Source: Massilia varians
GTDB taxonomy: Bacteria; Pseudomonadota; Gammaproteobacteria; Burkholderiales; Burkholderiaceae_D
DNA length: 64,000 bases
Reading direction: 5' to 3'
NCBI RefSeq assembly: GCF_027923905.1
Contig: NZ_AP026966.1
Coordinates: 558,001-622,000, forward strand
The number at the start of each line of letters is the position of its first letter. The stretch's first letter is position 1. The position numbers were made by a program, and so were the translations under genes. This document shows positions 22,287 to 41,632 of the stretch, piece after piece. Under the pieces are notes generated by a model. The model saw only the letters and a program-made list of their open reading frames with translations. It was not told the origin of the DNA and did not search any database.

Positions 22287-22364
22287 TCTTGAGCGCTCTG
22301 TACCGAAAGCATAAGTTAGACTCGGCGTGCAAAGTACGGAAATAAAGCAGTACAAAGGATTAAT

Positions 22365-25300
22365 GTGACGAATACGTCATTACATAATTGGCTCGATAAG
22401 CTTGGGTATTCGGCAGAACCTGCGGTTTTGCATTTGCGCGGTGACTCAATCCCTGAGACGCACCCGTACGCTCTTGAGATAGCGAATCTCTTGAAGCCAG
22501 ATGGAGCGATTCGTGCCCAAGCAGTCTTTGATGTGGAGGGCGTACCAACCGTTGTCTTCTTGGGAGACGATAACAAGCCTTTGACTTCCACGGAACTTGA
22601 CGAAGCGCGAAAACGTATTTGGAATCAGAATCTTGCGACCGTTGTTATTGAGATTAAGGGCGATCATGCGATCGCGCTTCCAGCTCGAAAGTTAAAGAGT
22701 GCGTTCGCTCAACTATCGCTAGCAGATGCGCGTCCTGATGGGGATTTTTCGGCCTTGGATGTCGTCTCGGCTAATCTTTCCCGTCGAGCGCCGAGCTGGT
22801 TTGATGTCAAAGCACGGGTAGACCGTAAGCTACTTGACAACCTTAATGTCGTCGTCGCGAAGCTTGTAGAAAGCGGCTTCTCAGGAGGTAAGAATAAGCC
22901 ACAGCGTAAGCGTTTGGCCGAATTACTTATGGGCCAAGTACTTTTCGTTGCTTATCTTGAGCATCGGGAAATCGTAGGTCAGACGTATAGAGAGCGCCGA
23001 AACGTTTCGCAATTACATAGTCTCGTCAAAAGTGGCGATAGGGCCGGAGTGCAGGCCCTTGTAGACCGACTGAGGACTGACTTTAACGGTGATTTTTTAG
23101 GCGAGGATCGCCACGACCCCTGGAATGCCTTGGCCGACGACGGGTTTGTCCTGCTTGATCAGTTCCTACGGAGGACCGACATGCGCACTGGACAACAAGA
23201 TTTTTGGAATTATGACTTCAGCTATATTCCGGTTGAATTGCTTTCTGGCCTATACGAGTCATTTCTGATTCCGGATCAGAAAGCCAAGGACGGAGCGTAT
23301 TACACGCCACGTAATTTGGCTATGCTTGTGGTCGATCAGGCATTTTCTTCATCACCCGACCCGCTTTCGGAAACGATTTTTGATGGTGCTTGTGGTTCTG
23401 GAATTCTGCTGACAACAGCTTATCGTCGCCTTATAGCGTTGGCAGAGCGGCGAGAAAAGCGGCAAATAAGCTTCAGCGAACGTTCAAGAATTTTGGAAAC
23501 CTGCATATTCGGCGGTGACATTAATTTTATGGCGTGCCGTGTTACTGCCTTCAGCCTCTATTTGTCGTTATTAGAGGGCCTCGCTCCCGCCGACATACTG
23601 GAGGCGCAGGAGCAGGAAGGGGCTAGGTTACCTTCGCTGAAAGGAACAAACCTCGCGTACGGTCACAAAACCGCAGATTTTTTCAATAATGCGCATCTGT
23701 TTCGCACAAGACAGTTCTCGCTAATCATATCAAATCCGCCATGGGCTGAACCGGCTGGTGAAACTCGTACTTCTGCGGACGATTGGGCCGAACAGGCCGA
23801 CGCCCCCTTTGTACGGCGCCAAATTGCCGGAGCATACGCCCTGCGCGCGTTAGATTTTTTAACAACAACTGGCCGAGTGTGTTTGGTCCAGCCTATTGGG
23901 CAGTTCCTAGGGCCTTCGAGCTCTGGCTTTGTTTCGCACTTACTCGAGAAGTACCGTCCAATACGACTTCTCAATTTCGGGGATCTGCAGGGCCTCCTCT
24001 TCCCGACGGCAGAGAACACTTGCCATGTGTTCCTCGGGGAGCGCAGGTCAGTAGAGCCTTGCGGGGGAATATCGTTCGGAGAGATATTTGAGTACTGCGT
24101 GCCGAAAGCGGACATGAGCCTCTCATTGGGGCGACTCACGGTGCAGTCCAGTGACCGTCACCTACTTCAAACACGCTCTATAGTAGACGATCCACAGCTT
24201 CTCGTTACCTTAATGTGGGGTGACGCTAACGACCTCGCGACTTGGACACGACTAACGGCGCGCGGTACCTTTGCAGATTTTTGGTCGGGTCCACGTGAGT
24301 TTCGCCGATGGGTGTACCGCAAGGGCATCCACCTAAATGATAAAAGCCGTGTGGCCGTCAGTGCAGCGCCTTTGAGGCGGACACCTTTTGTGCCAATTGA
24401 AGTTCTAAGCGTTGGCTCTCCTGTTTTACATCCAGAACTGCTCACTAAGTGGCCTGCAAGCCAGGATACCGTAGTTGGTCTAAACTCTGCCATATTGGAC
24501 GTTTTCGACGGCCCACGCGTGCTGTTTCCAGACGGGTTCTCGCGGGGCGAGCAAAACGTCCGGGCCGTGTATTACGACGGGCCGGCCTCGTTTACTCACA
24601 GTGTTGGCGTAATCGCAGGAAAGGCCGAGCATGCACTACTTTTGCAATTCGTCGCGGTGTATCTGCGCTCTAGTCTCGCACGATATTTTTTGATGATACG
24701 CGGCTGGAAAATGCTTTGTGAGCGAAACGGAGTGCACTTAGCTGACGTCGAAACTTTCCCCTTCTTTATTCCTGAGGATGCACCTGATCCAGTAGCTGCC
24801 AAAGCAGCATTGGAGACTGTCTCCGAGTGCATGGCTCAGATATCGGATTTAGCTGAGTGGGAGCAAAAACGGTGCTACGAAGAGTTGCGGTCAACTCTCG
24901 ACCAAGCAGTCTTCGATTATTTTGGCCTCTCGTCCGAAGAGCAGGCGTTGGTCAGTGAATCGGTGGACGTTTTAATGCCATCAATCCGTCCTCGTAGTTT
25001 CAAAAGCCTAGACACGCCAGCACAGCGATCCGCAAGTCCAGCAAACGTCGAACGATACGCGACTGCATTAGCTGAATCGCTTACCTCTTGGCGGAAACGA
25101 ACCGGGGGAGAGGGACGCTTTAGTGTCAACGTGACAGTGAGTGATCCAAATCGAGCGGGCCCGTCGGGGATCGTTCGCATAAAATTTGCTCCACAACCTA
25201 CGTCGAGTCCCGAAATAGAGACCGAGGTTGATAGTGAGCTAGTCCTCGAGACCTTGGCCCTGCTTCGTGATGCCGGTTTTCGTGCTATCCCTTCTGGAAA

Positions 25301-25517
25301 TTATCTAACTTTGGTTCCCGATATTCATTTATGGATGGAGGGGGCACTTTACCTAGTGCGCCCCCTTGCTCTGCGCAGTTGGACAATCCGCCAAGCTCTG
25401 CGTGATGCGGAGCACGTCGTCCGAACGGTTCAGTTGGGCGCAGTCCGAACGGTCCAGTTCAGTACGGTCCGAACGGTTCAGGTAGGCGCAATGCGCGAGA
25501 AGCAGGAGACGGCCTGA
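22365..25517 (+). CDS. N6-adenine DNA methyltransferase, large (restriction-system type)
   Basis: The 1,050-residue protein has the N6-methylase SAM motif FDGACGSGIL (about residue 340) and catalytic motif ISNPPWAEP (NPPW near 456). A preceding YYTPRNLAMLVVD is typical of type I and IIG HsdM-like enzymes, and the region after the catalytic domain could recognise DNA. No separate HsdS gene is present. It starts at GTG 22365 with AAAGGA 5 bp upstream; an overlapping ATG at 22363 is followed at once by a stop. Its C-terminus carries a three-unit peptide repeat. The next gene overlaps its stop codon by 1 bp. Confidence 0.85.
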   Translation: MTNTSLHNWLDKLGYSAEPAVLHLRGDSIPETHPYALEIANLLKPDGAIRAQAVFDVEGVPTVVFLGDDNKPLTSTELDEARKRIWNQNLATVVIEIKGDHAIALPARKLKSAFAQLSLADARPDGDFSALDVVSANLSRRAPSWFDVKARVDRKLLDNLNVVVAKLVESGFSGGKNKPQRKRLAELLMGQVLFVAYLEHREIVGQTYRERRNVSQLHSLVKSGDRAGVQALVDRLRTDFNGDFLGEDRHDPWNALADDGFVLLDQFLRRTDMRTGQQDFWNYDFSYIPVELLSGLYESFLIPDQKAKDGAYYTPRNLAMLVVDQAFSSSPDPLSETIFDGACGSGILLTTAYRRLIALAERREKRQISFSERSRILETCIFGGDINFMACRVTAFSLYLSLLEGLAPADILEAQEQEGARLPSLKGTNLAYGHKTADFFNNAHLFRTRQFSLIISNPPWAEPAGETRTSADDWAEQADAPFVRRQIAGAYALRALDFLTTTGRVCLVQPIGQFLGPSSSGFVSHLLEKYRPIRLLNFGDLQGLLFPTAENTCHVFLGERRSVEPCGGISFGEIFEYCVPKADMSLSLGRLTVQSSDRHLLQTRSIVDDPQLLVTLMWGDANDLATWTRLTARGTFADFWSGPREFRRWVYRKGIHLNDKSRVAVSAAPLRRTPFVPIEVLSVGSPVLHPELLTKWPASQDTVVGLNSAILDVFDGPRVLFPDGFSRGEQNVRAVYYDGPASFTHSVGVIAGKAEHALLLQFVAVYLRSSLARYFLMIRGWKMLCERNGVHLADVETFPFFIPEDAPDPVAAKAALETVSECMAQISDLAEWEQKRCYEELRSTLDQAVFDYFGLSSEEQALVSESVDVLMPSIRPRSFKSLDTPAQRSASPANVERYATALAESLTSWRKRTGGEGRFSVNVTVSDPNRAGPSGIVRIKFAPQPTSSPEIETEVDSELVLETLALLRDAGFRAIPSGNYLTLVPDIHLWMEGALYLVRPLALRSWTIRQALRDAEHVVRTVQLGAVRTVQFSTVRTVQVGAMREKQETA
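25419..25490 (+). repeat. Three 24-bp tandem repeats at the methylase C-terminus
   Basis: Units at 25419, 25443 and 25467 share GTCCGAACGG and encode VRTVQLGA, VRTVQFST and VRTVQVGA. The 24-bp period keeps frame, so copy-number change would lengthen or shorten the protein without breaking it. Confidence 0.85.
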
Positions 25518-26281
25518 TGACAATCCCAACGAGTTGGTTTGCCGCGTTCCCTATTGTGCCAGCAACAGAAGCAGTCGAGGTTCTTCGGGAAGCCTGGACT
25601 TATCTAGCCAGCCGTCCTCGGGCTGACTTTAATCCAGAAACGCATGAGGGGCCCTTAACCAAGCGACTGAAGGTGTACGTGGAGAACTACACCGCCCGGG
25701 AACGAGGGTTACTCGGAATGTGGGCAGCTGAAGACATTATCGGAGATATATGCCCGACGAGCGGCTCACTAGTCGAGGAGCGCCGAACTGACATCGTCTA
25801 TGGCTGGAATGACGATGTCCGAGATATGAAGTTAGTGTTTGAATTCAAGCGGTTGGGTAAGCAGAAAAGTCACAGGGACCATTATTTACTCGATCAAGGG
25901 CTAGGGCGTTTCGTTACTGGCATTTACAGCCGTCGACAAGCTGTCGCGGCGATGGTGGGTGTCCTTCTTGATCCAGAGCCAGAGATCGTACCTCCAATCA
26001 GGGCAGCACTTTCTGATCCTGCGCTTGCGACCTCCCTGCGACTTCGCCCCAACGGTGCAGGACAACCTTTCACGAAACCATCAAACCTGTTTGCGAACGC
26101 CGATTTCGACACGGAGCACGACCGGGACCCTTCATTAGCCCCGAGTCACGGGCACATTTGCGTGTCACATTTCTTTTTTTCCTTCGGATATCCAACAAGT
26201 TCCAGCAAACCAAGAAAGGCCTCCGCACGCCAAGGAGGAACTGCAAAACCGAAAGTGTCCCACAATCCCAAATCCACTTAG
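25517..26281 (+). CDS. PD-(D/E)XK nuclease-like protein of the helicase-methylase cassette
   Basis: The 254-residue protein contains RRTDIVYGW (D92) and, after a short loop, KLVFEFKRLGKQ (E109, K111), the spacing expected of a PD-(D/E)XK nuclease core. The C-terminal 60 residues are Ser/Lys-rich. Its ATG overlaps the methylase stop (TGATG), so expression is coupled. With the upstream helicase it gives the cassette two candidate nuclease active sites. I do not recognise a named family; it could instead recruit one of the larger proteins. Confidence 0.65.
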   Translation: MTIPTSWFAAFPIVPATEAVEVLREAWTYLASRPRADFNPETHEGPLTKRLKVYVENYTARERGLLGMWAAEDIIGDICPTSGSLVEERRTDIVYGWNDDVRDMKLVFEFKRLGKQKSHRDHYLLDQGLGRFVTGIYSRRQAVAAMVGVLLDPEPEIVPPIRAALSDPALATSLRLRPNGAGQPFTKPSNLFANADFDTEHDRDPSLAPSHGHICVSHFFFSFGYPTSSSKPRKASARQGGTAKPKVSHNPKST

Positions 26282-26373
26282 CATTTAATGCGGCTTCCGA
26301 CTGTAACTACTGACCGAGCGTTCAATGTACGCCTGCGGTAACTACTGATGAGCCTTGTCAGGACTTAGAACGC

Positions 26374-27177
26374 CTAACAAAACCGCTCGACGTACCGCCA
26401 GCAGATGAGCGAGCAGGCAAGCGAAAGGAACGCCTGGTGCACGTCTGCTCGCCGCTCATGTCGGATGCGCAATCTACGGAAGCGGTGTAGCCAACCCAAG
26501 GTGCGTTCGACGACCCAACGCCACCGGCCAAGCCTTTCGCGTGACTCTACGCCGTAACGCGCGATCCGAGCTGCAATGCCCCGACTGCGCAGCCAGGCCC
26601 GATGGGCTCTTGAAGCGTACGCTCGATCGGCATGCAGCTTACCAGGACGTTTACGCGCACGGCCTGCCAGCCCCTTAACTGCGGGGATTGACTCTACCAG
26701 CGGGATGAGGAAACGCGAGTCGTGTACCTGCGCGCCTGAGATCTGAGCTACTAACGGAAGCCCACGCTCATCCACCAGCAGATGATGTTTGCTTCCGAGT
26801 TTGCCGCGATCGGTTGGGTTTCGGCCCGTGTGCTCGCCTCCGGCAGGTGCCGGTACGCTTGCAGCATCAACGCAAGCTCGATCCCACATGATCTGGTCAT
26901 GCTCTCGGAGCCTTCGCAAAATCGCCTCGTGTATACGCTGCCAAACGCCAGCAAGCATCCATTCGTGCAGGCGACGCCAGCATGTCATGCCGCTGCCGCA
27001 GCCGAGTTCGCGCGGCAGGTACTCCCACGGTATTCCAGTCTTGAGGACAAACAGGATCCCGGTCAGGGCCGCGCGATCATCGATACGCGGGCGTCCGCCT
27101 TTCGGCGATCGGTGATGGGCCGGAAGATGAGCTGCTATAAGCGACCACAGGTCTTCAGGAAGTAGTGCTCGGGCCAT
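26374..27177 (-). CDS. IS5-family transposase (full-length, single frame)
   Basis: The 267-residue transposase has an N-terminal RPRIDDRAALTGILFVLKTG segment and a DDE catalytic triad visible as CVDAASV, LHADRAY and WVVERTLGWL. It ends WRYVERFC right beside the left inverted repeat. Many relatives need a frameshift between two overlapping frames; this one is continuous. The ATG is at 27177, about 480 bp inside the right end. Confidence 0.9.
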   Translation of the reverse strand: MARALLPEDLWSLIAAHLPAHHRSPKGGRPRIDDRAALTGILFVLKTGIPWEYLPRELGCGSGMTCWRRLHEWMLAGVWQRIHEAILRRLREHDQIMWDRACVDAASVPAPAGGEHTGRNPTDRGKLGSKHHLLVDERGLPLVAQISGAQVHDSRFLIPLVESIPAVKGLAGRARKRPGKLHADRAYASRAHRAWLRSRGIAARIARYGVESRERLGRWRWVVERTLGWLHRFRRLRIRHERRADVHQAFLSLACSLICWRYVERFC

Positions 27178-27274
27178 GGCATCAGTCCGTCTACGAACAC
27201 GGACACTATGTTAGTGCCCGGACTGAGCCTGCGTAGGTCTGCTTCCGACCCAAAGCAGTCATTGAAACACGACG

Positions 27275-27532
27275 TTATCGCGAGCCTGCACGTCGTTTTT
27301 GCTTAACAGCTTTCCATATCTGCCATACATTTCTGATCATGGGCGCTGCATACGCGACAACGAAAACGATTGGCACGGATGAGAGAAAAATTGCAAGGTC
27401 GGTGCGTGCTGGACTCCTGTTAAAAAAGTAGATCAGCCCTCCGGTTGCAACCCCGAAAACAAATCCAGATCCTACGAACTTGAGCACAGCGATGATCGAT
27501 TCGCGCATAGCTCTTTCTAATGAGTCTGTCAT
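27275..27532 (-). CDS. Small two-helix membrane protein carried inside the IS
   Basis: The 85-residue protein has two hydrophobic helices (KFVGSGFVFGVATGGLIYFF and LAIFLSSVPIVFVVAYAAPM) and a basic C-terminal tail (KQKRRAGSR). It lies between the transposase and the right inverted repeat, on the transposase strand. No family is recognised. It may be a true passenger gene or a captured host fragment. Confidence 0.55.
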   Translation of the reverse strand: MTDSLERAMRESIIAVLKFVGSGFVFGVATGGLIYFFNRSPARTDLAIFLSSVPIVFVVAYAAPMIRNVWQIWKAVKQKRRAGSR

Positions 27533-27737
27533 GCTGCTTTCTTGAAGCTTAGGGATTATTGTCGGTTTGTGGGGGGATTACCGAAGGACCGCTTGTGGCC
27601 GAAAGCGGACGGTCGGTATGGCTCAGTGTACGAGCATGTTGCCGTCAGAGCAAGTAACAGGTTTTGTTAGGCGTTCTAAGGCCTTCTAAGCGCAAATTTG
27701 CGAGCATCTGGAAACATGTTGCGCGCGATCTTGATTG

Positions 27738-28301
27738 TCATGGGACATAGGCGATAGCAGTGAATGGGGAGTTGCAGCGCATGGCCACGCCTCGATCGTC
27801 CTCTTGTAGCATTATTGCCCGGCCGAATTCCTCGGGCTGGGCAAGGCACTCACGCCACTTCCACGCGTAGTTTGCGCATAGGTTCCTTTTCTCCCACAGC
27901 TCGATCTGCTTCAAGGCCTCCCGCTTAATCCAGGTGCCGGGCTGGCCTGATTGATACAGCAGATCGGCCACAGCGCAATGAAACGCGAGCTGCCGGCGCT
28001 CCTGCTCTTTTTTCTCTGCCAAGACCTTGCGACGGTGTTCGAGCTTCTGCTCGCGCGTCAGGTTGTCTCGGTTGTTCCATTCCTCGGCGGATGGTAGTAC
28101 GCGCTCCAACCCGGCCAAGTCTGCGGCGCGGTTCGCCTCAAGCAGATCGTGTAAGGCCTGCAGCTGGCAGCGCGCCGGCGCGTAGGCCGGACGAAGCCCG
28201 GCCGCATCTGATTCGGCCACGGCTTGATTCACACCCTTGCTGATCCCTGCCATGAGCTCGGCGCTGAAGATAATGCTCTGCAAATCTTTCGTCGCCATCA
28301 C
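27738..28301 (-). CDS. Hypothetical cytoplasmic protein
   Basis: The 187-residue protein is rich in charged helices, with a probable coiled coil around LTREQKLEHRRKVLAEKKEQERRQ split near residues 80-103. It has Cys and Trp residues in LCANYAWKWRECL. It starts at MMATKD, either Met being possible. It lies just outside the IS right end. No family or function is recognised; codon use looks genuine. Confidence 0.6.
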   Translation of the reverse strand: MMATKDLQSIIFSAELMAGISKGVNQAVAESDAAGLRPAYAPARCQLQALHDLLEANRAADLAGLERVLPSAEEWNNRDNLTREQKLEHRRKVLAEKKEQERRQLAFHCAVADLLYQSGQPGTWIKREALKQIELWEKRNLCANYAWKWRECLAQPEEFGRAIMLQEDDRGVAMRCNSPFTAIAYVP

Positions 28302-28403
28302 GATTTCCCTTTCCGTATCACTACTCTTTTGTCATGCCATGGTACGTCTCGAGCCAACGTCAACTCAAGAAATATTGTTTCGACGCCGCCGGAGGCGGCC
28401 TGT

Positions 28404-28577
28404 ATGCTCAAGTCGACAGAGACTGTGGCGGTGCTGCTCAAGGCTGTGGCTGATTCCAGAGACATCTTTGAACGCGGAAGCGTCGTATCGGACAAGATCA
28501 GCGATGCGGCTGCAAATCTGCTGCACTCCTCGCACGTCTCGCGCGGCAATAGCGCAAGGTCTCGATCGTTAGTGTGA
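28404..28577 (+). CDS. Possible small protein
   Basis: A 57-residue frame beginning MLKSTETVAVLLKAVADSRD, with GGAGG 8 bp before the ATG. The GGAGG is inside a GCCGCC/GGCGGC hairpin that could hide it. No family is recognised. It is divergent from the 187-residue gene. Confidence 0.3.
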   Translation: MLKSTETVAVLLKAVADSRDIFERGSVVSDKISDAAANLLHSSHVSRGNSARSRSLV

Positions 28578-28682
28578 CAAGCGGCCGGTAGACCGTGTCG
28601 CAGGATGGACTGAGCGATCGATAACCTCGGGGGAGTACTTCGGTTGTTTCTTCATAGCTCAAGTTTTTTAAAAATAGAGCAT

Positions 28683-29906
28683 CTACAAAAACCGGGGAAA
28701 TTCACTATGAAAGAAATCGCTTATATTTCTTGCCGTCACGGTTTCGAAAGCGAAGTTACCTTTTCCTAGAACTTTGTCGAAAAGGATTCCTGTGATGATG
28801 GGTTCTTTATCCGCGCGCAGTCGGTTCCAAGGTCGGATAGGGGAATTATTGGCTAGCCGACGGTCGATGTCGCGACGGAGATTGCCGGCAACCATATTGT
28901 AGACATGAGGGCGTAAATATCTACCTTCTTGAATCAGGGCGGCGGTCTCCCGCATCGTGTACCAGAGAACATTCCAGACCTGAGCGAGTGATACCCGCTC
29001 CAGGCAATATCGGATCGATTCAGCAACCTTTGGGGAGAAAATAGCCTCCTTGGAAAAACGGTAGCGCTCGCATAGTTCGCCAAAATAGCGTTCGCATTCT
29101 GCCTCGGCAACCATGGACCAAAGCTCAGCAACCGACACAAGATCACGCTGGTCAAGCACCATTTCCAGCGAACCCAGAATACTTTCGATGGGCGCCCCAT
29201 CCTTGGGGAGGGCTAACGTCCAGTTGACCTCTTGAGGTGGAAAGTTAAATGTGCCTGATACATCGTCGACGATGATGTATGCCTTCGAGCTCCACGAGGG
29301 CGCCGGGGCAATAATCCCTTCCTTATATAGGTGCAGATAGATAGCTGTCGCCATCTCCTCTGTCGGAGCAAAGTTCCCTGCTTGTGTCCCTAAGGACATG
29401 ATCTGCCGCCCTTGCCAACACTCTCCAGCGGCCCTAAGTAAAGAATAGAGAAGGAATGCCTCAGTGTATCCAAAAGCACTATAGTCAATTGGATCCAGAG
29501 GTGCACCAAGCGCTGTAAGCATATTTGCAACTTGAGCCTTCTTGCGCTCATCTTCTGCTACCGCTTCAGCTACGCGTTTATGTTCGGCCGCTTGTGTGCA
29601 CTTCTGACAGCGGTGCACATGGCCTTTCCTGACGAATGACCTAGCCGCATCAACAAACTGCTGTCGCGAAGTAATCTCTGGCGCGGTCCCGCAATCGTGG
29701 CATCTGATCCCCTTAATGTATGATCGACATGAAGCACCGATCAGCGCGAGTAAGTCCCGCTGTGCCCATCCGCTTCGCTGTTGCAGGGCCGTTACTTTTT
29801 CACTCCAAGTTCCATTGTTCTCTAGGGACCAATATCGCAAGCAGAGATCGAGTGTTTGTTCGTTGTCGGTGAGGAAACAGAGGATAGGGGTAGGTTTACA
29901 GATCAT
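28683..29906 (-). CDS. Hypothetical protein with zinc-ribbon motif
   Basis: The 407-residue protein has a CHDCG (about residue 70) and CQKC (about residue 100) pair spaced like a zinc ribbon or treble clef, followed by a charged helix (AEHKRVAEAVAEDERKKAQV). The remaining 270 residues are mostly helical with no motif I recognise. It is divergent from the XRE regulator across a 175-bp gap. Zinc binding is inference from Cys spacing. Confidence 0.6.
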   Translation of the reverse strand: MICKPTPILCFLTDNEQTLDLCLRYWSLENNGTWSEKVTALQQRSGWAQRDLLALIGASCRSYIKGIRCHDCGTAPEITSRQQFVDAARSFVRKGHVHRCQKCTQAAEHKRVAEAVAEDERKKAQVANMLTALGAPLDPIDYSAFGYTEAFLLYSLLRAAGECWQGRQIMSLGTQAGNFAPTEEMATAIYLHLYKEGIIAPAPSWSSKAYIIVDDVSGTFNFPPQEVNWTLALPKDGAPIESILGSLEMVLDQRDLVSVAELWSMVAEAECERYFGELCERYRFSKEAIFSPKVAESIRYCLERVSLAQVWNVLWYTMRETAALIQEGRYLRPHVYNMVAGNLRRDIDRRLANNSPIRPWNRLRADKEPIITGILFDKVLGKGNFAFETVTARNISDFFHSEFPRFL

Positions 29907-30018
29907 TGCAATTGAACATCAAGCCTTGAGATGCATGATTCCGAGCCCCTAATGTAATAGGTGACGTAGGAACCAGCGGATGTGCTGTGGGAGGAGCAGT
30001 GGGGTAGGTCAAAATGCA

Positions 30019-30028
30019 GAGTATACTC
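30019..30028. promoter_or_regulatory. GAGTATACTC palindrome upstream of the XRE gene
   Basis: A perfect 10-bp palindrome about 54 bp before the XRE start, between two divergent genes. It resembles half-operators bound by small XRE and restriction-controller proteins, so autoregulation is possible. Confidence 0.4.
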
Positions 30029-30081
30029 CGAAGACTTAATCATACCGCAAGGACATGATTTCTCCTAAATAGGGAGGAATC

Positions 30082-30312
30082 TTGGATCCAGGGCTGGCCT
30101 TTGCGAAGGTCTTACGAAAAGTTCGAAAGCAGGCAGGGTTGACGCAAGAGCAACTAGCAAATAATGCAGGTGTTGACCGGACTTTTATCAGCCTTGTGGA
30201 ACGAGGTATCAACCAGCCATCCGTGCGAGTCCTTTTCAGGCTTGCCGCAGCGCTCGGTGTCTCACCAACGGAGCTGATCAATATGACAGAACATCAGTCC
30301 AGCCAGGACTGA
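30082..30312 (+). CDS. XRE-family helix-turn-helix regulator
   Basis: The 76-residue protein is nearly all HTH: VRKQAGLTQEQLANNAGVD then FISLVERGINQPSV, with LFRLAAALGVSPTELI completing the fold. Size and layout match phage or controller-type repressors. The start is a TTG at 30082 supported by AGGGAGGA 5-6 bp upstream; no ATG fits. It may control the divergent zinc-ribbon gene or other island genes. Confidence 0.8.
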   Translation: MDPGLAFAKVLRKVRKQAGLTQEQLANNAGVDRTFISLVERGINQPSVRVLFRLAAALGVSPTELINMTEHQSSQD

Positions 30313-30585
30313 CCAAGCGCTTGCTGCCTCCGAGCCGCCCCAAACGTGACTGCTTTGCTCAGATGGCGGGTTGTCTCAGCTTCCGCCGGCATTGAGGCTT
30401 CTGCAATGACGCCGGCGCAAATTTGCCGTCCACGACGGTGCCAGTACCATCGGCAAGGCGGTAGGGTTGACGAACGACCAATTCCGTTAGAAAGCCCCGC
30501 ATGAGACAATATGTGCTTTGCCCCAGCGGGCACGTACAACTCATCCACGACCGGCAGAACTATTTGCCAAGGCACAGAGCAGGCA
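30313..30585. other. Gap before the island ttcA; possible degraded coding remnant
   Basis: No intact gene is seen. On the minus strand, pieces in different frames read like protein (GFLTELVVRQPYRLADGTGTV; ASMPAEAETTRHLSKAV), suggesting a frameshifted relic. No promoter for the ttcA copy is obvious. Confidence 0.3.
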
Positions 30586-31530
30586 ATGAACGTTATAGAA
30601 CATAAATTCAACGAAGACGAGAGCAGTGGAGAAGTTGTGCCCGATGAGCTCTCGAGCAGCACTATGTCTAGAACATCCCGGCGCTTTGAGATGCTGGAAA
30701 AGACGATCCGAAGGTCCACAGGCAAAGCGATCATGGAGTTCAACATGATCGAAGAGGGGGACTTGGTCATGGTGTGTCTTTCCGGAGGCGCCGACAGCTA
30801 CACGATGCTGGAAACCTTGCGTCACCTCCAGCGCATCGCCCCCGTAAATTTTGAGCTGATCGCAGTCAACTTGGACCAGAAGCAGCCAGGCTTCCCGGAA
30901 CATGTTCTGCCAACATACCTTGATAGCATCGGTGTTCGCTATCAAATCGTTGAGCAAGACACTTACAGCATCGTCAAGGAAAAAATTGCGCCTGGGAAGA
31001 CTACATGTTCGTTGTGCTCTCGGTTGCGCCGCGGCATCTTGTATCGCACCGCTAAAGAACTCGGAGCCACAAAAATCGCCCTTGGGCACCACCGCGACGA
31101 TATCCTGCATACGTTCATGCTGAACATGTTTTACGGCGGATCGATCAAGAGCATGCCACCGAAACTTCTTGCGGATGACGGCGAGAACGTCGTTATTCGG
31201 CCTTTGGCATACTGCAGAGAGGGAGATATCAAGAAGTATGCGGCGGCAATGGGCTTCCCCATCATTCCATGCAACCTGTGTGGATCTCAACCTAACCTGC
31301 AGCGTCAGGCGATGCGCGAGATGCTGAACCAATGGGAAAAGACTAACCCACTCTGGATTCGGAGCATGGTGACGGCAATGCAGAATGTTGTTCCGTCACA
31401 TATGATGGATCGCTCACTCTTCAACTTTAATTCATTCAAGGTCGAGACTGAGCGGAATATCGAAGGCGATACACTTTTTGACTCGCAGGATAAAGTCAAC
31501 AACGAGCAAAACGTGGTCAAGTTCGTTTAA
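30586..31530 (+). CDS. ttcA: Island-borne TtcA, tRNA 2-thiocytidine(32) synthetase
   Basis: The 314-residue protein is a complete TtcA. It has the PP-loop [13 protein letters not shown], the cluster Cys motifs [12 protein letters not shown] and [10 protein letters not shown], and strong similarity along its length to the interrupted chromosomal copy (for example AVNLDQKQP and DTYSIVK). The PP-loop has Ala where TtcA normally has Lys (SGGKDS), still within the general SGGXDS pattern. The N- and C-terminal tails differ from the host type. It presumably replaces the activity lost on insertion. ATG 30586 is chosen since the upstream extension shows no similarity. Lower GC than the host gene shows separate origin. 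Confidence 0.92.
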
Positions 31531-31536
31531 GAGTAT

Positions 31537-31640
31537 CTAACAAAAATCGCTGGTGTACGGCCGGCAGATGAGTGCGCAGGCGAGCGGAAGATGACCTTGG
31601 AAAACATCCACTCGTCGCACGTGCCGGATCAGTGGTTTAT
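31537..31640 (-). mobile_element. Truncated end of an IS5-family element
   Basis: About 100 bp match, with many changes, the left end of the intact IS at 26373-26490 (shared CTAACAAAA and GGCAGATGAG-type blocks). On the minus strand it encodes the decayed transposase C-terminus. It begins 6 bp after the island ttcA stop. Confidence 0.75.
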
Positions 31641-32001
31641 GCTGCAATAGTACGCGCACGTAATCAAACACGATACGCTCGGCAGGTTCTCCTTGCAGGT
31701 TCTCAGAATATTTCACAATGTCTCAGAAAAATTCGCAGTGACTTCGCAGTAGTTTTCCCTAGTCCGCAGTGGTTTTGCTTCAGTCCGGCAAAGCCACTAC
31801 AAAGCGCGATCATTGATGACGATAGTTATCAATTTTCGAAACAATCAGTTGCCACCAGCCGATCTTCTCGACGATCGGGCTCCTCCTTATAGTTTGCCTG
31901 TGTCCAGCTCACCTCGCCGTTCTTCAACGCCGACGTGAGCGGACCGGTCAATCACCCATTCAACGTCGCCTTGATGGCGCATCGAAAGCAGGAGAAGAGT
32001 T
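31641..32001. other. Non-coding gap before the oxidoreductase block
   Basis: No convincing gene. Near 31735-31790 it contains degenerate CGCAGT-GTTTT repeats, and before 32002 an AGGAGAAG ribosome binding site. GC content rises across this gap, marking a change in sequence origin. Confidence 0.4.
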
Positions 32002-32991
32002 ATGGCACGTCATGTTCGTTTTCACAAAACCGGTGGTCCTGAAGTTCTGCAAATCGACGAGGTTCCTACTCCGGAGCCGAAGGCTGGCGAAGTACGCATC
32101 AGCGTCCGCGCGTTGGGTCTGAACCGCGCCGAGAGCATGTACCGCACCGGTCGCTACGTGATCGAGCCTACCTTCCCGGCCACCATGGGATATGAGGCAT
32201 CGGGTGTGATCGACGCCGTCGGCGCGGGAGTAGACGGTCTGGCGGTCGGCGATTCGGTCGCCGTCATCCCGGCCTTCATGTTCGACCAGTACGGCCTGTA
32301 TGGCGATCTCGTGATCGCCCCGTCCCGCGCCGTGGTCAAGAATCCGGCTGGCGTGAGCTGGGAAGCCGCGGCAGCCACCTGGATGCCGTTCACGACAGCC
32401 TGGGGCGCCCTGATCGACCTGGCTGGCCTGGGCAAAGGCGAATTCGTAGTCCTGTCGGCAGCGTCGAGCAGTGTCGGCCTGGCCGCGATGCAGATCGCCG
32501 AGTCGGTCGGTGCTACCCCGATCGCCATTACCCGCAAAGGCGAAAAGGTCGACGAACTGAAGCAGGCAGGCTTTACCCACGTCCTGCAGACCGGCCTGGA
32601 CGACATCACTGCAGAGATCATGCGCATCACCGGCGGCGCCGGCGCACGCGTGGTCTTCGATCCGGTCGGCGGCCCCGACTTCGAAAACATCGTCAAGGCG
32701 ACGAGCAAGGATGCGATCGTGTTCATCTATGGTGCACTGAGCCACGACGTAACCCCGGTGCCGGTGCTGCACGTGCTCGGCAAGCACACGACGATTCGCG
32801 GCTACGAATTCATCGAAGTCACCACTGATGACGAGAAGCTCGCCCGCGCGAAGGCATTCATCACCGAAGGCCTGAGCGCTGGAAAGTTTAGCCCGCAGAT
32901 CGCCAAAGTGTTCCCGTTCGAAGAGATCGTCGAAGCGACCCGCTTCCTCGAGTCCAACGCGCAGTTCGGCAAGATCGTGGTCAAGCTGTAA
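32002..32991 (+). CDS. MDR-type zinc-independent quinone/alcohol oxidoreductase, paralogue 1
   Basis: The 329-residue protein has the MDR N-terminal fold (PEPKAGEVRISVRALGLNRAE, MGYEASGVIDAVGAGVDGL) and a Rossmann domain with LSAASSSVGLAAMQIAESVGA. The zinc-binding Cys/His set of alcohol dehydrogenases is absent, so an NADPH:quinone reductase-like role fits. It is closely similar to the gene at 35594, including YRTGRYVIE versus FRTGQYLEK and the FGKIVVKL ending. Strong AGGAG site before ATG and a terminator after. Confidence 0.85.
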   Translation: MARHVRFHKTGGPEVLQIDEVPTPEPKAGEVRISVRALGLNRAESMYRTGRYVIEPTFPATMGYEASGVIDAVGAGVDGLAVGDSVAVIPAFMFDQYGLYGDLVIAPSRAVVKNPAGVSWEAAAATWMPFTTAWGALIDLAGLGKGEFVVLSAASSSVGLAAMQIAESVGATPIAITRKGEKVDELKQAGFTHVLQTGLDDITAEIMRITGGAGARVVFDPVGGPDFENIVKATSKDAIVFIYGALSHDVTPVPVLHVLGKHTTIRGYEFIEVTTDDEKLARAKAFITEGLSAGKFSPQIAKVFPFEEIVEATRFLESNAQFGKIVVKL

Positions 32992-33020
32992 AAGCCACAC
33001 TGGCGTAATTATGCGTCCGG

Positions 33021-33047
33021 AAGCCCCGCGTGCTGCGGGGCTTTTGT
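33021..33047 (+). terminator. Rho-independent terminator after MDR paralogue 1
   Basis: AAGCCCCGC / GCGGGGCTT stem with 5-nt loop and a T run. Confidence 0.88.
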
Positions 33048-33082
33048 CGTACAGGATTCGACGCTACGTGCTTATTTCCCGA

Positions 33083-34000
33083 TTACTCAAGCCAGGTGCG
33101 GTCGATGGCGAGAAAGTGCTGCTGAAGCCAGTCCGAGAATGCACGCAGCGGCGGGGGAACATGCGACCGGCTGGGATAAACCAGCGAGACGGGGCGCGGG
33201 GCGGGACGAAATTCCGTCAGGACCTCCACCAGCGTCCCATCGCGAAGGTACCGATCCACCAGAATTCCCGGTACTTGAATCAAACCGAAGCCTGAGCGGG
33301 CGCACTGGACATAGGCCGATGCATCGTTCACCAGCATCGAGCTGTCGGGCAGCAGCGAGCTGCTGATCCCATCCTGGAGGAAGTGCCATGGCAGCGTGCG
33401 TTTGCTGATCCCGGACAGGAAATTGACGCATGCATGTTGCGCGAGACAGTCCGGTTGATCGAGCGAGGCCGCTTTCTCGAGATAGGCCGGCGCTGCGCAG
33501 GTGATCATCACGAGCGCACCCAGGCGGCGGGCCACCAGGCTTGAACTCGGCAGTTCGCCGATGCGCAGCACGCAATCCACTCCTTCGGCGATGAGGTCGA
33601 CCGAGCGATCGCTCACTCCCAACGTGATCGATAACTTGGGATATGCATTGCGGAACTGGCTGAGCGAAGCCATGAAGCCCTCTACGGCAAACGCCGAAGG
33701 AATATCGATCCGGAGCCGTCCGCTTACGGCGTCCCCCGGAGCCTGAAACATTGCCACGGCTTCCTCGACGCCGCCAAGAATCTCTTCAACCTTGGCCAGG
33801 AACGCCTTGCCCTCGGCAGTCAGGCTGACCTTGCGTGTCGTTCTCTGAAACAGTCGTACTTCCAGCGATGCTTCTAGCTGGTTGATGGCCAACGTGACTT
33901 GCGGCCGGCCGATCTGCAGGGACTCGGCGGCCTTGGTGAAGCTTTGCAGCTGTGCGACCTTTGAGAACAGACGCATTGATTGAAAGAGCTCCATCGGCAC
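33083..34000 (-). CDS. LysR-family transcriptional regulator
   Basis: The 305-residue protein has the LysR winged HTH (MRLFSKVAQLQSFTKAAESL, then LEVRLFQRTTRKVSLT, residues 9-63) and a periplasmic-binding-like effector domain. It belongs to the CrgA/DsdC-like group often paired with oxidoreductase genes. It is convergent with MDR paralogue 1 and 56 bp downstream of the HxlR gene on the same strand, so it may regulate the block in either direction. Confidence 0.88.
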   Translation of the reverse strand: MPMELFQSMRLFSKVAQLQSFTKAAESLQIGRPQVTLAINQLEASLEVRLFQRTTRKVSLTAEGKAFLAKVEEILGGVEEAVAMFQAPGDAVSGRLRIDIPSAFAVEGFMASLSQFRNAYPKLSITLGVSDRSVDLIAEGVDCVLRIGELPSSSLVARRLGALVMITCAAPAYLEKAASLDQPDCLAQHACVNFLSGISKRTLPWHFLQDGISSSLLPDSSMLVNDASAYVQCARSGFGLIQVPGILVDRYLRDGTLVEVLTEFRPAPRPVSLVYPSRSHVPPPLRAFSDWLQQHFLAIDRTWLE

Positions 34001-34056
34001 CTCTACTTAATTGCTTGCATTGCCAGAGCGATGCGGCCGACACAGAAAGCGCGGCA

Positions 34057-34467
34057 TCAGTCTTCGTCCGGAGGCGATATCGCGTCTCCGGACGCGGCCC
34101 TGTTACGTTCAACCGCGTCCAGTAGCGCAGCGTTTGCTTCCGCCCAATCGTAAAGCGTCAGCAAGGGTTCGACGAATTTCTGTCCCAGCTCCGTCAGCGA
34201 ATACTCGACCGCCGGCGGCACGACCTGGTGCACCTTGCGCGCGACGAGCTGGTCTCCCTCCAGTTCCCGCAGGGTCTGAGTGAGCATCTTTTTGGAGATC
34301 CCCGGCATGCTGCGCTGTAGCTGTCCAGTGCGCAGCGGGCCGAAACTGAGCACGTAGATCACCATTGACGTCCACTTCGGCGTGAGCAGCATGTGGATAC
34401 GCCGCGGCAGACACGTTTCGCTGACGACAAGCGGGTCGAGCGGTCGGCGGACGGTAGGAGTGATCAT
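34057..34467 (-). CDS. HxlR-family transcriptional regulator
   Basis: The 136-residue winged-helix protein shows the HxlR core (LLTPKWTSMVIYVLSFGPLRTGQLQ split near residues 27-51, and GISKKMLTQTLRELEGDQLV). It lacks the conserved early Cys of redox-sensing members such as YodB/HypR, though the CLPR upstream of the HTH has a Cys at about residue 19. It is divergent from the oxidoreductase at 34589 and is the best candidate for its regulator. Confidence 0.85.
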   Translation of the reverse strand: MITPTVRRPLDPLVVSETCLPRRIHMLLTPKWTSMVIYVLSFGPLRTGQLQRSMPGISKKMLTQTLRELEGDQLVARKVHQVVPPAVEYSLTELGQKFVEPLLTLYDWAEANAALLDAVERNRAASGDAISPPDED

Positions 34468-34588
34468 GGTTACCTTTTGGTGCCTATGGTTCGGAAAAGT
34501 GCCTAATTTACTTGTGGAGCCTTATGGATCAATATTACTCCACAACTCGTTTTATTCCCAAGAACCGTTTGTTAAAGGAAGTCCAACA

Positions 34589-35590
34589 ATGACCACCCAA
34601 ACCATGCGCGCGCTCGTACTGAACGATTACGCCGACGGACAATTCAGCGACACGCAGGTACTACGCCCCGCTCCCGGCGCGGGCGAAGTCCTGGTGCAGA
34701 TCTTCGCCAGCGGCGTCAATCCGATCGACTACAAGATCCGGACGGGTGCAGCCCCGTACGCAGAGCCGGAGCTGCCGGCCATCCTCGGCACCGACCTTGC
34801 CGGCGTCGTCGCCGAAGTCGGCGCCGGTGTCACCGACTTCAAGGTCGGTGACGAGGTATACGGCTTGACCGGCGGTGTACGCGGCATCCCGGGCACCCTC
34901 GCCGAGTTCGCGGCGGTGGACGCACGCCTGCTGGCGCCAAAGCCGAAGAACCTCAGCATGCGCGAGGCTGCAGCACTGCCTCTCGTGTTCCTGACAGCGT
35001 GGGAAGGCCTGGTCGATCGGGCGCACGTGCGCGCTGGCCAGCGTGTGCTGATCCAGGGAGGCGCCGGCGGCGTCGGCCACGTAGCGGTCCAGATCGCGCG
35101 CGCGTTTGACGCCGATGTCTACGCCACCGCCTCAAGCGGCAAGCACGACGTCATCCGGGGCTACGGCGCTACGCCCATCGACTACCGCACGGCCAAGGTG
35201 GCCGACTACGTCGCGCAGCATGCGGACGGTGTTGGCTTCGACGTCGTCTACGATACGGTTGGTGGACAGACGCTCGACGACTCGCTCGTCGCCGCCAAGC
35301 CCTACGGTCACGTGCTCAGCTGCTACGCGTTCGGCGAAACCAATCTCGCTCCAGGTTCGCTGCGCTGCGTGACGCTGTCGGGCATCTTCGTGCTGCTGCC
35401 GATGCTCAGTGGAGAAGGCCGTGCCCATCATGGCGAGATCTTGCGCGAAGCAACCCGTCTGGCTGAAGAAGGCAAGCTCAAGCCGCTGGTCGACGAAAAG
35501 CGCTACACGCTGTCGGATGCCCACGCCGCCCACGATGCACAAGAAGCGGGCAAGGCACTGGGTAAGATCGTCATCGACGTCGCATCCTGA
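34589..35590 (+). CDS. MDR-type NADP-dependent oxidoreductase, paralogue 2
   Basis: The 333-residue protein has GVNPIDYKIRTG, LGTDLAGVVAEVGAGV and the nucleotide-binding IQGGAGGVGHVAVQIAR. It belongs to the zinc-free quinone oxidoreductase group. ATG 34589 is preceded by AAAGGAAG; the longer frame from 34382 overlaps the divergent HxlR gene and is not used. It is followed after 3 bp by paralogue 3, so the two are co-transcribed. Confidence 0.87.
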   Translation: MTTQTMRALVLNDYADGQFSDTQVLRPAPGAGEVLVQIFASGVNPIDYKIRTGAAPYAEPELPAILGTDLAGVVAEVGAGVTDFKVGDEVYGLTGGVRGIPGTLAEFAAVDARLLAPKPKNLSMREAAALPLVFLTAWEGLVDRAHVRAGQRVLIQGGAGGVGHVAVQIARAFDADVYATASSGKHDVIRGYGATPIDYRTAKVADYVAQHADGVGFDVVYDTVGGQTLDDSLVAAKPYGHVLSCYAFGETNLAPGSLRCVTLSGIFVLLPMLSGEGRAHHGEILREATRLAEEGKLKPLVDEKRYTLSDAHAAHDAQEAGKALGKIVIDVAS

Positions 35591-35593
35591 ATC

Positions 35594-36589
35594 ATGGTCA
35601 CGCTTTCGCAAGTTGTCCGGTTTCATGAGCTGGGCGGCCCGTCCGTTCTACTACTCGAGCAGCGCGCCGTCCCCGTCCAAGCAGAGGACGAAGTGCTCAT
35701 CAAGGTTATGGCGATCGGACTGAACCGCGCTGACAAGATGTTCCGCACTGGGCAGTACCTGGAAAAGGCCCGGCTTCCCTCGATGCTTGGCTTTGAGGCG
35801 GTTGGTACTGTAGTGGCCTGCGGCGCGTCGGTCACGGGTTTTGCGGCTGGCGACATGGTGGGCGTCGTGCCAGGGTTCGAAGTGGGGAGATATGGAACGT
35901 ACGCCGAGCACGCACTGATTCCCGCGTCGCACGTACTGCCCCAACCTGCAGGGCTGTCGCCCACGGAGGCGGCAGGCCTGTGGATGGCCTACCTGACTGC
36001 TTACGGCGGCCTGGTCGAGGCAGGTCGAACGGGAAGCGGCGACTGGGTTGCAATCACTGCTGCTTCAAGCAGCGTCGGCCTGGCGGCGATACAAATTGCT
36101 CGCCGGGTCGGGGCACGGCCGATCGCCATTACCTTGACGAGCGCAAAGCGCGAAGCCCTGCTGGCGGCGGGCGCCGAAGCGGTGATCAGTACGACAGAGG
36201 AATCCTTGGATGAGCGACTCCGCGCACTGGCACCGGATGGCCTCCAGTGCGTATTCGACGCCGTCGGTGGCCCGCAGGTCGCTGTTCTTGCGGATGCCAT
36301 GGCGCGCCGCGGTACCATCGTCGTTCATGGGGCACTCAGCCCGGAGCCGACGCCGTTCCCATTGAAGCTGGCGTTAAAGCGCAGCCTGTCGCTACGCGGG
36401 TTCGTCTACACGGAAGTCACTGAGGATCCGGATGCTTTGCAGCGGGCCCGAGCCTTCATCAAGCTTGGCATCGAAACAGGATTTCTACGGCCTCACATCG
36501 ACAAGGTGTTCCCGCTGCGCGACGTCGTCGCCGCGCATGAGTACCTCGAATCGAACCAGCAGTTCGGCAAGATCGTGATGACGGTGTGA
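35594..36589 (+). CDS. MDR-type quinone oxidoreductase, paralogue 3
   Basis: The 331-residue protein has the same domain order as the others, with GLNRADKMFRTGQYLEK and ITAASSSVGLAAIQIARRVGA. It resembles paralogue 1 more than paralogue 2, so duplication within the block or repeated recruitment is likely. No structural zinc Cys cluster is seen. Confidence 0.86.
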   Translation: MVTLSQVVRFHELGGPSVLLLEQRAVPVQAEDEVLIKVMAIGLNRADKMFRTGQYLEKARLPSMLGFEAVGTVVACGASVTGFAAGDMVGVVPGFEVGRYGTYAEHALIPASHVLPQPAGLSPTEAAGLWMAYLTAYGGLVEAGRTGSGDWVAITAASSSVGLAAIQIARRVGARPIAITLTSAKREALLAAGAEAVISTTEESLDERLRALAPDGLQCVFDAVGGPQVAVLADAMARRGTIVVHGALSPEPTPFPLKLALKRSLSLRGFVYTEVTEDPDALQRARAFIKLGIETGFLRPHIDKVFPLRDVVAAHEYLESNQQFGKIVMTV

Positions 36590-36630
36590 TGGAAATCGGG
36601 CGTATTGCCCGAATGTAGATCTGTATGAAA

Positions 36631-36670
36631 ATCGCTCCACCGGGCAGTATCGGCCGGGTGGAGCGATGTT
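36631..36670. terminator. Hairpin between convergent oxidoreductase genes
   Basis: ATCGCTCCACC (36631-36641) pairs with GGTGGAGCGAT (36657-36667), followed by GTTTAT. It can end transcripts from both sides. Confidence 0.75.
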
Positions 36671-36681
36671 TATGCAGTTAT

Positions 36682-37689
36682 TCAGTTCGAAGGAAATTCC
36701 GGCAGGACGTATTCCGACAGCTCCTGCAGCACTTCGCGCGCAGGCCGGCGCGAGACCTTCAGGTTCAGCGCAACGTGGTTCACGCCAAGAGCCTGCAGCC
36801 AGTACAGGTACTCGATCAAGCTGTTACGCCCGACGCGCAAGCCTGAATGGATGCGCTGCACCGGATGATCCGGATTCTCTGACAGGTCGAAGAACATCCC
36901 TTGTGCAAAGGGCTTGAACACATCGGATTGCGTTTCACGCTTGACTACGTCGCGCCAGGTCGACACCAGTGGCGCTAAGTGCTCCGGGTTGACGAAGTAG
37001 TACAGCCAGCCGTCTGCGTTCCGTGCGATCCACTCCAGGTCCTGGCGACTTCGTCCTGTAACGATAGTCGGGATTTTGCTATGGGCCGGTTTCGGCAGCA
37101 GGTCCAGCGAGCCGTCGAGAGAGCCGAATCGTTTAGACCGATGTACGGCGAACGTTTCCTCCAGGCTGGCCTTGAACATGCCGAGCGCTTCACGGAAACG
37201 CTCACCCCGCGACTCGAAATCGCTTTCGATACCAAAAGCAGGATACTCACTCGGCCGATCTCCCGACGAAATCCCTAATACCATGCGTCCGCCTGAGAGC
37301 TGGTCGACGGAAGCAGCCTGCTTTGCCAGCAGAAGCGGGTGCCGAAGCGTGACCACCGCGCTGCCGGTTGCCAAGGCCAGGCGCTGCGTGATCGCCGCCA
37401 TGAAACCCAGATAAGTGAAGGGCTCATACAGTTGACCGGTGTCGCCAAACATAGGGTCGTACATCGGCACGTCACGCGCCCAGACGCCGGCAAAGCCTGC
37501 CTCGTCGGCGTAGCGGGCAACGGCGGCATGGTCGTGCATGGTAGGCGCTGGCGAGTTCGGGTAGCCCTCCAGTGGGAGGATGAAACCGATCGTCAGCCCG
37601 CCTGGCTTGAACATGCGCGAAAAGCCAGCATGGGTCGAGAGTTGAGGCGGTAGCAATTGTGTTTGTGCTGTTGGTGTGTCTGCTGCCAT
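36682..37689 (-). CDS. LLM-class flavin-dependent oxidoreductase
   Basis: The 335-residue protein has the luciferase-like TIM-barrel features: GFILPLEGYPN near the start, ARYADEAGFAGVWARDVP, LALATGSAVVTLRHPLLLAKQAASVDQLSGGRMVLGISSGD (split near residues 105-145), and IVTGRSRQDLEWIARNADGWLYY. It should bind FMN or F420-like cofactor; the oxidised substrate is unknown. The start at 37689 follows AAGGAGC; an upstream in-frame ATG at 37773 is weaker. Confidence 0.85.
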   Translation of the reverse strand: MAADTPTAQTQLLPPQLSTHAGFSRMFKPGGLTIGFILPLEGYPNSPAPTMHDHAAVARYADEAGFAGVWARDVPMYDPMFGDTGQLYEPFTYLGFMAAITQRLALATGSAVVTLRHPLLLAKQAASVDQLSGGRMVLGISSGDRPSEYPAFGIESDFESRGERFREALGMFKASLEETFAVHRSKRFGSLDGSLDLLPKPAHSKIPTIVTGRSRQDLEWIARNADGWLYYFVNPEHLAPLVSTWRDVVKRETQSDVFKPFAQGMFFDLSENPDHPVQRIHSGLRVGRNSLIEYLYWLQALGVNHVALNLKVSRRPAREVLQELSEYVLPEFPSN

Positions 37690-37786
37690 TGCTTGCTCCT
37701 TCTTCGCTGGTAGCTGCGGCCCAGGCGCGGTCGATGTAATCGACGAACTTACTTTCGATACGGGTGGGACCACAGCTGCGTTAGCC

Positions 37787-38802: not shown

Positions 38803-38908
38803 ATCATTTCCTCGGTGTGTGTTTGGTCTGGAAAGTCTAGTTGATCCCGGCAGGCAGAAAAAGCCGCTAAAATTCCAGACTTCCCATCCTCCCAGTCCAT
38901 AATCAGCC

Positions 38909-40957: not shown

Positions 40958-40976
40958 TTCGGTGAGCTGATCTGGC

Positions 40977-41625: not shown

Positions 41626-41632
41626 AGTCGAT

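What the first reader, a model, noticed from the sequence alone, without database searches (positions are those of the whole stretch)
30586..31530. Island carries a replacement ttcA that lacks the insertion core
The cargo ttcA is complete, but its PP-loop codons read GGA GGC GCC GAC AGC where the target reads GGC GGC AAG GAC AGC. The single Lys-to-Ala change removes GCAAGG, so the element cannot use its own ttcA as a target while keeping an SGGXDS loop. This looks like a self-compensating and self-immune design: it disrupts the gene, supplies the function, and protects the supplied copy.
Basis: partly seen in the sequence, partly recalled or inferred. Interest (0 to 1): 0.85.

Follow-up and report, generated by a model that had tools for sequence, protein, structure and literature searches.

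The report
Mobile island carrying replacement tRNA-modifying gene
A mobile DNA island cuts a conserved tRNA-modification gene in two at its active-site loop but carries its own intact copy of that gene, a pairing seen in two bacterial families that may outlive the island itself.

Summary
In detail: ttcA at 30586-31530 is intact, reads SGGADS (GGA GGC GCC GAC AGC) and sits in a 28.3-kb island that splits the host's only other ttcA at GCAAGG in its PP-loop.

The island is a divergent GInt (ginABCD, 41206-46951). "Disrupt and replace" is well supported. Two further islands read here (Massilia sp. Root133; G955, another family) split ttcA at the same codon and carry an SGGADS ttcA. Thirteen more TtcA/GinB protein pairs have equal contig lengths. 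Over 16 pairs TtcA and GinB co-diverge (Mantel r 0.79). One genus shows three states: intact native ttcA; split native plus island copy; SGGADS ttcA alone beside folB with a ginC remnant.

"Self-immune by one Lys-to-Ala change" is not shown. Ala is a clade trait (217 of 219 listed relatives), also of sole copies without gin in Herbaspirillum, Noviherbaspirillum and Undibacterium. A synonymous AAG-to-AAA change would also remove GCAAGG, and nine more nearby bases differ from the target. All 16 gin-linked copies lack the Lys codon, so immunity remains possible but is confounded with descent.

New variant of a known kind (GInt).

The parts
30586..31530 (+). replacement ttcA, 314 aa, PP-loop SGGADS
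   Evidence: NCBIfam NF007972 464.6 bits vs cut-off 272; PP-loop codons at 30784-30798
47065..47242 (-). 5' half of the native (SGGKDS-type) ttcA, ends in the PP-loop at GCAAGG
18022..18770 (-). 3' half of the native ttcA, starting with GCAAGG (ORF 18022-18780 opens at a GTG in the element end)
47065..47070 (-). GCAAGG core copy at attL
18765..18770 (-). GCAAGG core copy at attR
47053..47064 (-). left element end, motif GTATGCGCACAC (Root133: ATATGTGCATAC)
   Evidence: compared by eye
18771..18783 (+). right element end, read inward TTATGTGCACATA (Root133: ATATGTGAATAC); imperfect inverted repeat of the left end
   Evidence: compared by eye
45584..46951 (-). ginA, 455 aa, tyrosine recombinase (PF00589)
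44079..45587 (-). ginB, 502 aa, integrase-like
   Evidence: NF041502 143 bits, below that model's cut-off of 350; 24.9% to GinB of pTROUS1
41633..44095 (-). ginC, 820 aa
   Evidence: 24% to GinC of pTROUS1 over its C-terminal part, E 1e-15
41206..41670 (-). ginD, 154 aa
   Evidence: 32.6% to GinD of pTROUS1, E 1.6e-6
18765..47064 (.). whole integrated element, 28,300 bp with the core counted once
47239..47637 (-). folB (dihydroneopterin aldolase type), native upstream neighbour of ttcA; landmark for empty and domesticated sites
   Evidence: name from the Comamonas record that has it beside ttcA and from recall; neighbourhood
19304..19378 (-). fossil of the 3' end of a Lys-type ttcA inside the island (80% over 76 aligned columns to the host C-half)
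   Evidence: local score 75; best of 500 shuffles 28

Best explanation
The window holds a GInt-type mobile island whose recombinases (ginABCD) integrate at the PP-loop codons of ttcA (core GCAAGG), interrupting the host gene, and which carries a divergent, intact ttcA of its own. That copy (SGGADS clade) has travelled and diverged together with the gin operon for a long time. It pays the cost of inserting into the middle of a conserved gene and helps the island persist. When the island decays, the carried ttcA can remain as the host's only copy. The Lys-to-Ala change is a shared old trait of this TtcA clade; it may make the copy a poorer target as a consequence but was not demonstrably selected for that. 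Shown here: the split site, recurrence, intactness, co-divergence, one decayed stage with a ginC remnant. Inferred: enzyme activity, recombination at this site, order of events, benefit to the island.
For: Chromosome holds only the island ttcA and two halves; the joined empty site encodes full SGGKDS TtcA. GinB matches at E <= 1e-10 in 17 of 392 family genomes; only two are close (E < 1e-160), the window's and Massilia sp. Root133; both split ttcA at the same codon and carry SGGADS ttcA. Third island in another family, G955: native ttcA cut at ...GGGGGCAAGG, folB beside it, SGGADS copy intact while ginA, the 5' part of ginB and part of the native C-half are gone. 13 TtcA and GinB clusters share exact longest-contig lengths, all above 7 kb (about 0.13 expected by chance above 7 kb, 0.9 over all lengths, by a kernel estimate), all SGGADS. 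16 TtcA/GinB pairs: Mantel r 0.788, p 5e-5; both trees divide into the same 8+8 at 99-100 support. pN/pS window vs Root133 0.15; 0.15-0.49 over the 36 pairs. G849 / G955 / G1031 of one genus: intact SGGKDS, split plus island, and SGGADS-only with a ginC remnant between folB and ttcA (E 1.6e-9 and 2.2e-10). All four gin genes match, in order, an operon beside ssb.
Against: No enzymatic or recombination test. The 13 extra pairs rest on contig lengths, not on DNA that I could read; one is a 5.1-Mb contig, so only the same replicon is shown. The two trees differ inside the 8-member groups: TtcA joins window with Root133, GinB joins Root133 with P0022, both with middling support. Only 1 of 22 SGGADS loci without gin shows a gin remnant, so domestication elsewhere rests on position alone; Herbaspirillum has ttcA collinear with folB, which homologous replacement would also give, and the G955 copy is on the same strand as folB, unlike the two Massilia islands. 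pN/pS is 0.31-0.49 for several pairs where synonymous sites are not near saturation. The basal SGGADS group (f37 and SKS MAGs) shows no gin, so the gene could have been captured from a chromosome.
Confidence: 0.85

Rival explanations
1. Self-immune design: selection on the element changed or kept Ala in the cargo PP-loop so that the recombinases cannot cut the supplied copy; every viable cargo ttcA must then lack the core.
For: GInt integration frequency depends partly on attB/attI identity (PMC5385486, Results read).
Against: Ala is shared through the clade, including sole copies without gin, so one inherited change explains all 16. A synonymous change would remove GCAAGG: 20 of 59 Lys-type rows read GCAAAG. 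Root133 has unequal spacers at its two ends. Nine further mismatches surround the Lys codon in the window copy.
Confidence: 0.25
2. Ordinary cargo: the ttcA copy was picked up by chance with other DNA and its presence in a ttcA-splitting island is coincidence.
For: GInts carry very diverse cargo (PMC5385486); of 14 other GInts of the family scanned (2 of them with almost no flank), none carried a convincing copy of its flanking gene in the 3-10 kb read.
Against: Recurrence in 3 of 3 read islands in two families, 13 contig-length pairs, co-divergence p 5e-5. The contrast with other GInts suggests that the copy is special to the subfamily that cuts mid-gene.
Confidence: 0.04
3. Repeated capture: SGGADS ttcA is a normal chromosomal gene of Herbaspirillum-like bacteria, and islands captured it several times from such hosts, rather than hosts keeping island copies.
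For: The basal SGGADS group (f37 and SKS MAGs) and several genera have it without detected gin; Herbaspirillum has it collinear with folB.
Against: TtcA and GinB trees agree in their main division and several pairs; G1031 has a ginC remnant beside its sole SGGADS ttcA; SGGADS genes without gin lie at the folB/ttcA target locus, pointing toward folB in 5 of the 8 cases near folB, as in the two Massilia islands.
Confidence: 0.12

Closest known systems
GInt (Genomic Island with three Integrases; Bardaji et al. 2017, PMC5385486; abstract, Results and Discussion read)
   Same: ginABCD order at one end, all four proteins detectably related to an ssb-side operon, site-specific insertion, large cargo including restriction-modification genes.
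   Different: The paper says GInt insertion probably does not inactivate target genes completely: intergenic, 3' end or 5' end sites. This one cuts the active-site loop and carries a replacement. Its GinB is only about 25% identical to that of pTROUS1.
Tn552-II of S. aureus with target-gene-like gene tgl (PMC12486829; abstract and passages read)
   Same: A site-specific element that carries a homologue of the gene it interrupts; the authors suggest a rescue role.
   Different: tnpABC, Gram-positive; its tgl still holds an att copy (i-att2), whereas the ttcA copy here lacks the core. No long co-divergence appears in the passages read.
[quoted passage not shown] PMC10214605; abstract, most of Background and passages read)
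   Same: Four-gene module, imperfect inverted terminal repeats, 6-bp spacer; Root133's GCAAGG/GGAAGG resembles the SE fingerprint/footprint.
   Different: The paper reports no BLAST similarity between SE and GInt genes and no Tfp/Srap homologues in Betaproteobacteria; the window genes match GInt-like genes. SE proteins themselves were not compared.
Rac prophage in E. coli ttcA (PMC4632033; passages read)
   Same: ttcA as an integration target.
   Different: Uses the 5' end of ttcA and changes four N-terminal residues; the passages name no second ttcA.

Membership tests
GInt | ginABCD operon in order at one end of the island | tested here: met
   Homologues in order to the operon beside ssb on pTROUS1: 34.5, 24.9, 24 and 32.6%. 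That pTROUS1 carries a GInt is inferred from gene order and its place after ssb, as described in PMC5385486.
GInt | flanking direct imperfect repeats of 10-17 nt from site-specific insertion | tested here: inconclusive
   6-bp exact GCAAGG at both ends (GCAAGG/GGAAGG in Root133), shorter than the published repeats
GInt | all four gin genes needed for excision and integration | not testable with these tools
   needs experiment
GInt | cargo of about 2.5-76 kb | tested here: met
   28.3-kb element; Root133 57.4 kb
GInt | short AT-rich 3' end | not tested
   not measured
SE | intA-tfp-intB-srap proteins | not tested
   SE proteins were not fetched; only the published lack of similarity between SE and GInt genes is cited
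SE | 6-bp spacer brought in at attR from the previous site | tested here: inconclusive
   Root133 attL GCAAGG, attR GGAAGG; the window is identical at both ends
Tn554 group | three-gene tnpABC module | tested here: not met
   four genes present; the cited paper says Tn554 lacks the counterpart of CDS2. Tn554 proteins were not compared.
TtcA | equivalog model score and conserved PP-loop and cysteine pairs | tested here: met
   464.6 bits vs 272; SGGxDS, CSLC and CNLC aligned with E. coli TtcA
TtcA | 2-thiocytidine-32 synthesis | not testable with these tools
   needs experiment

The most novel reading that the evidence does not exclude
A GInt lineage that lives by splitting ttcA at its catalytic loop and carries an obligate, core-free ttcA that is both antidote and immune copy; on decay it leaves that copy behind, so mobile elements have repeatedly replaced a core tRNA-modification gene across Burkholderiales and made the host's new ttcA resistant to further insertion.
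Probability: 0.3. Interest if true: 0.82.

Novelty: new variant of a known kind. Interest (0 to 1): 0.62.

Why it matters
Site-specific elements commonly limit damage by using gene ends or tRNA genes (recalled). Here an element cuts a conserved enzyme at its active site and, in each of the three islands read, brings its own replacement, which has co-diverged with the recombinases. This offers a mechanism for replacement of core genes by divergent versions, with candidate intermediate stages in one genus, and a testable case for asking whether carried target copies are shielded from the element's own recombinases.

Tried and rejected
Viral-contig scans with GinB and TtcA: nothing usable. Plasmid search with GinB: 6 records, all at 23-25%. 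Order-wide GinB search: 1 of 399 at E <= 1e-30, the window itself. Gin remnants in 22 SGGADS loci without gin (some redundant, two short): only G1031; 10 control loci none. P. flava: a GinD-like hit at E 0.001, 59 columns, about 5 kb beyond folB was not borne out by the GinD profile (best of all profiles a GinC match at E 0.1) and is taken as chance. Remnants of native ttcA halves in SGGADS-only loci of P. flava, G076, G115, Undibacterium, ANIsp_004 and four Herbaspirillum: none. Target-gene copies in 14 other GInts (L149 left out, no ginD; L147 and L157 had almost no flank): two marginal 17-22 aa hits at E 0.001, taken as chance; pTROUS1, 3.4 kb read after ginD, none. Fossil ttcA 3' ends in the Root133 and G955 islands: none. 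Promoter scan of the cargo ttcA region: nothing above shuffles. Structure predictions: not run. Reading the Ala as unique to this island: rejected. Rows dropped: P0019, P0010 and P0028 from the tree (the last two are the Root133 and P. flava genes, present as L125 and L034), and many Herbaspirillum and MAG rows thinned there and. Print: searches listed no paper that I recognised as describing a GInt that splits ttcA or carries a ttcA copy; the library lacks most subscription papers and bioRxiv preprints, and supplementary tables were not read.

Full report
Observation. The window is bases 558001-622000 of a complete 5.58-Mb chromosome. A complete ttcA lies at 30586-31530 (+) and reads SGGADS with codons GGA GGC GCC GAC AGC at 30784. 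The native gene on the minus strand is cut in its PP-loop...CTGTCGGGCGGCAAGG, core at 47065-47070, and GCAAGGACAGC..., core at 18765-18770. Joined with one GCAAGG, the halves give a full SGGKDS TtcA, 92.0% and 94.5% identical to two congeners and 86.6% to a third. The element is 28,300 bp. At DNA level, cargo and target differ at 12 of 39 bases around the loop, 3 of them the Lys codon.

What the island is. Beside the native N-half lie four genes in tandem (455, 502, 820 and 154 aa). The first is a PF00589 integrase. All four match, in order, an operon next to ssb on P. aeruginosa plasmid pTROUS1, the arrangement that Bardaji et al. describe for several GInts (PMC5385486; abstract, Results and Discussion read). 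The window's proteins are far from these (24-35%), so this is a divergent GInt subfamily. The terminal 12-13 bp form imperfect inverted repeats, similar in Root133 (compared by eye).

Does the pairing recur? A GinB search matched 17 of 392 genomes of the family at E <= 1e-10; two are close, this one and Massilia sp. Root133, and the other 15 are distant (E 6e-11 to 3e-19). In Root133 (GinB 53%) a 57.4-kb island splits ttcA at the same codon and has an SGGADS ttcA next to ginD. In another family, 3 of 399 genomes matched GinB at E <= 1e-20. One of them, G955, is close (45%): its native ttcA ends ...GGGGGCAAGG, folB is adjacent, an intact SGGADS ttcA is present, and the island is decayed (ginA not found, 5' part of ginB missing, native C-half eroded). 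Its copy lies on the strand of folB, unlike the Massilia islands. The other two genomes were distant and not followed up. The protein database shows no context, but of 219 listed TtcA clusters (two searches, 120 rows listed in each of 8000 scored) and 85 GinB clusters, 13 pairs have exactly equal longest contigs, all above 7 kb; a kernel estimate expects 0.13 above 7 kb and 0.9 over all lengths. One of these pairs (Acidovorax sp. 100) is a 5.1-Mb contig and shows only the same replicon. All 13 are SGGADS. For the 16 pairs, TtcA and GinB distances correlate (r 0.788, p 5e-5), and both trees divide into the same two groups of eight; inside the groups several pairs agree, but Root133 joins the window in one tree and P0022 in the other. 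An earlier test on 8 pairs gave r 0.83, p 0.0006.

Is the copy functional? Not testable here. It keeps SGGxDS, CSLC and CNLC as in E. coli TtcA. pN/pS between window and Root133 copies is 0.15, and 0.15-0.49 over 36 pairs of nine copies, with synonymous sites near saturation in many. The copy is intact in the decayed G955 island.

Where does the Ala come from? 118 of the 120 best relatives of the island TtcA are SGGADS, and so are all 99 further ones listed in a second search: 217 of 219. The exceptions are P0016, inside the clade, and P0019, which by eye resembles E. coli TtcA. The clade includes copies without gin in Herbaspirillum, Noviherbaspirillum, Undibacterium and Pseudoduganella flava, and no second ttcA was found in the nine such genomes searched for one. 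On a tree built with the loop residue masked, SGGADS rows group apart from the Lys-type TtcA of the same family; L067 (Lys) and L011 (Ala) sit at the base with weak support, and P0016 is a Lys inside it. The change is therefore old and shared, and the finding's own refuter is met. In addition, GCAAGG occurs in only 23 of 59 Lys-type rows and GCAAAG in 20 (rows include duplicates), so a synonymous change would remove the hexamer. Root133's attR spacer, GGAAGG, differs from its attL, as expected if the spacer was brought from an earlier ttcA with a GGG glycine codon, as in SEs (PMC10214605, Background part 1 read). Strict identity thus does not seem needed. Immunity stays open: all 16 gin-linked copies lack the Lys codon, and all three split genes are Lys-type.

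Decay and domestication. In genus g255 (3 genomes held), G849 has an intact SGGKDS ttcA beside folB (its parts 95% and 99% identical to G955's halves), G955 is split, and G1031 has only an SGGADS ttcA beside folB with a 68-column ginC remnant between them (profile match E 2.2e-10). In 8 of 10 genomes with an SGGADS ttcA and no close gin, ttcA lies within 18 kb of folB (G095 has them on different contigs and G155 has only a weak folB match). Only G1031, of 22 loci scanned, keeps a gin remnant.

What is known. Site-specific elements carrying a homologue of their target are in print: Tn552-II's tgl, with a suggested rescue role (PMC12486829, abstract and passages read). ttcA as a target is known from Rac (PMC4632033, passages read). 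I found no paper on a GInt at ttcA. I file the island as a new variant of GInt.

Noticed in passing
window 19304-19378 (-): A 76-column fossil of the 3' end of a Lys-type ttcA (80% to the host's) about 530 bp inside the right end of the island; it may record an earlier insertion or an outward shift of the right end that captured flanking DNA. Not found in the Root133 and G955 islands.
   Followed up: partly
window 19502-26281: Defence-like cargo: PDC-S28 helicase (1021 bits) and a type IIG restriction-methyltransferase (808 bits) in PADLOC, followed by an unnamed 254-aa gene.
   Followed up: partly
window 32002-40957: Cluster of three zinc-type dehydrogenases, a luciferase-like monooxygenase, two LysR and one HxlR regulators and a metallo-beta-lactamase-fold protein; looks like redox or detoxification cargo.
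   Followed up: no
window 26374-27177 (-): IS4/5-family transposase inside the island.
   Followed up: no
P0016: One TtcA inside the SGGADS clade reads SGGKDS; its 1.8-kb contig hides the context. It is the best natural test of whether a gin-linked copy can hold Lys.
   Followed up: partly
L145-L159: 15 distant gin operons in other genomes of the family (one cut by a contig end); none of the 14 scanned carries a convincing copy of its flanking gene near ginD.
   Followed up: partly
G955:C1:2071842-2077345: Decayed island with ttcA on the outer side of a truncated ginB, an order unlike the Massilia islands, suggesting rearrangement.
   Followed up: partly
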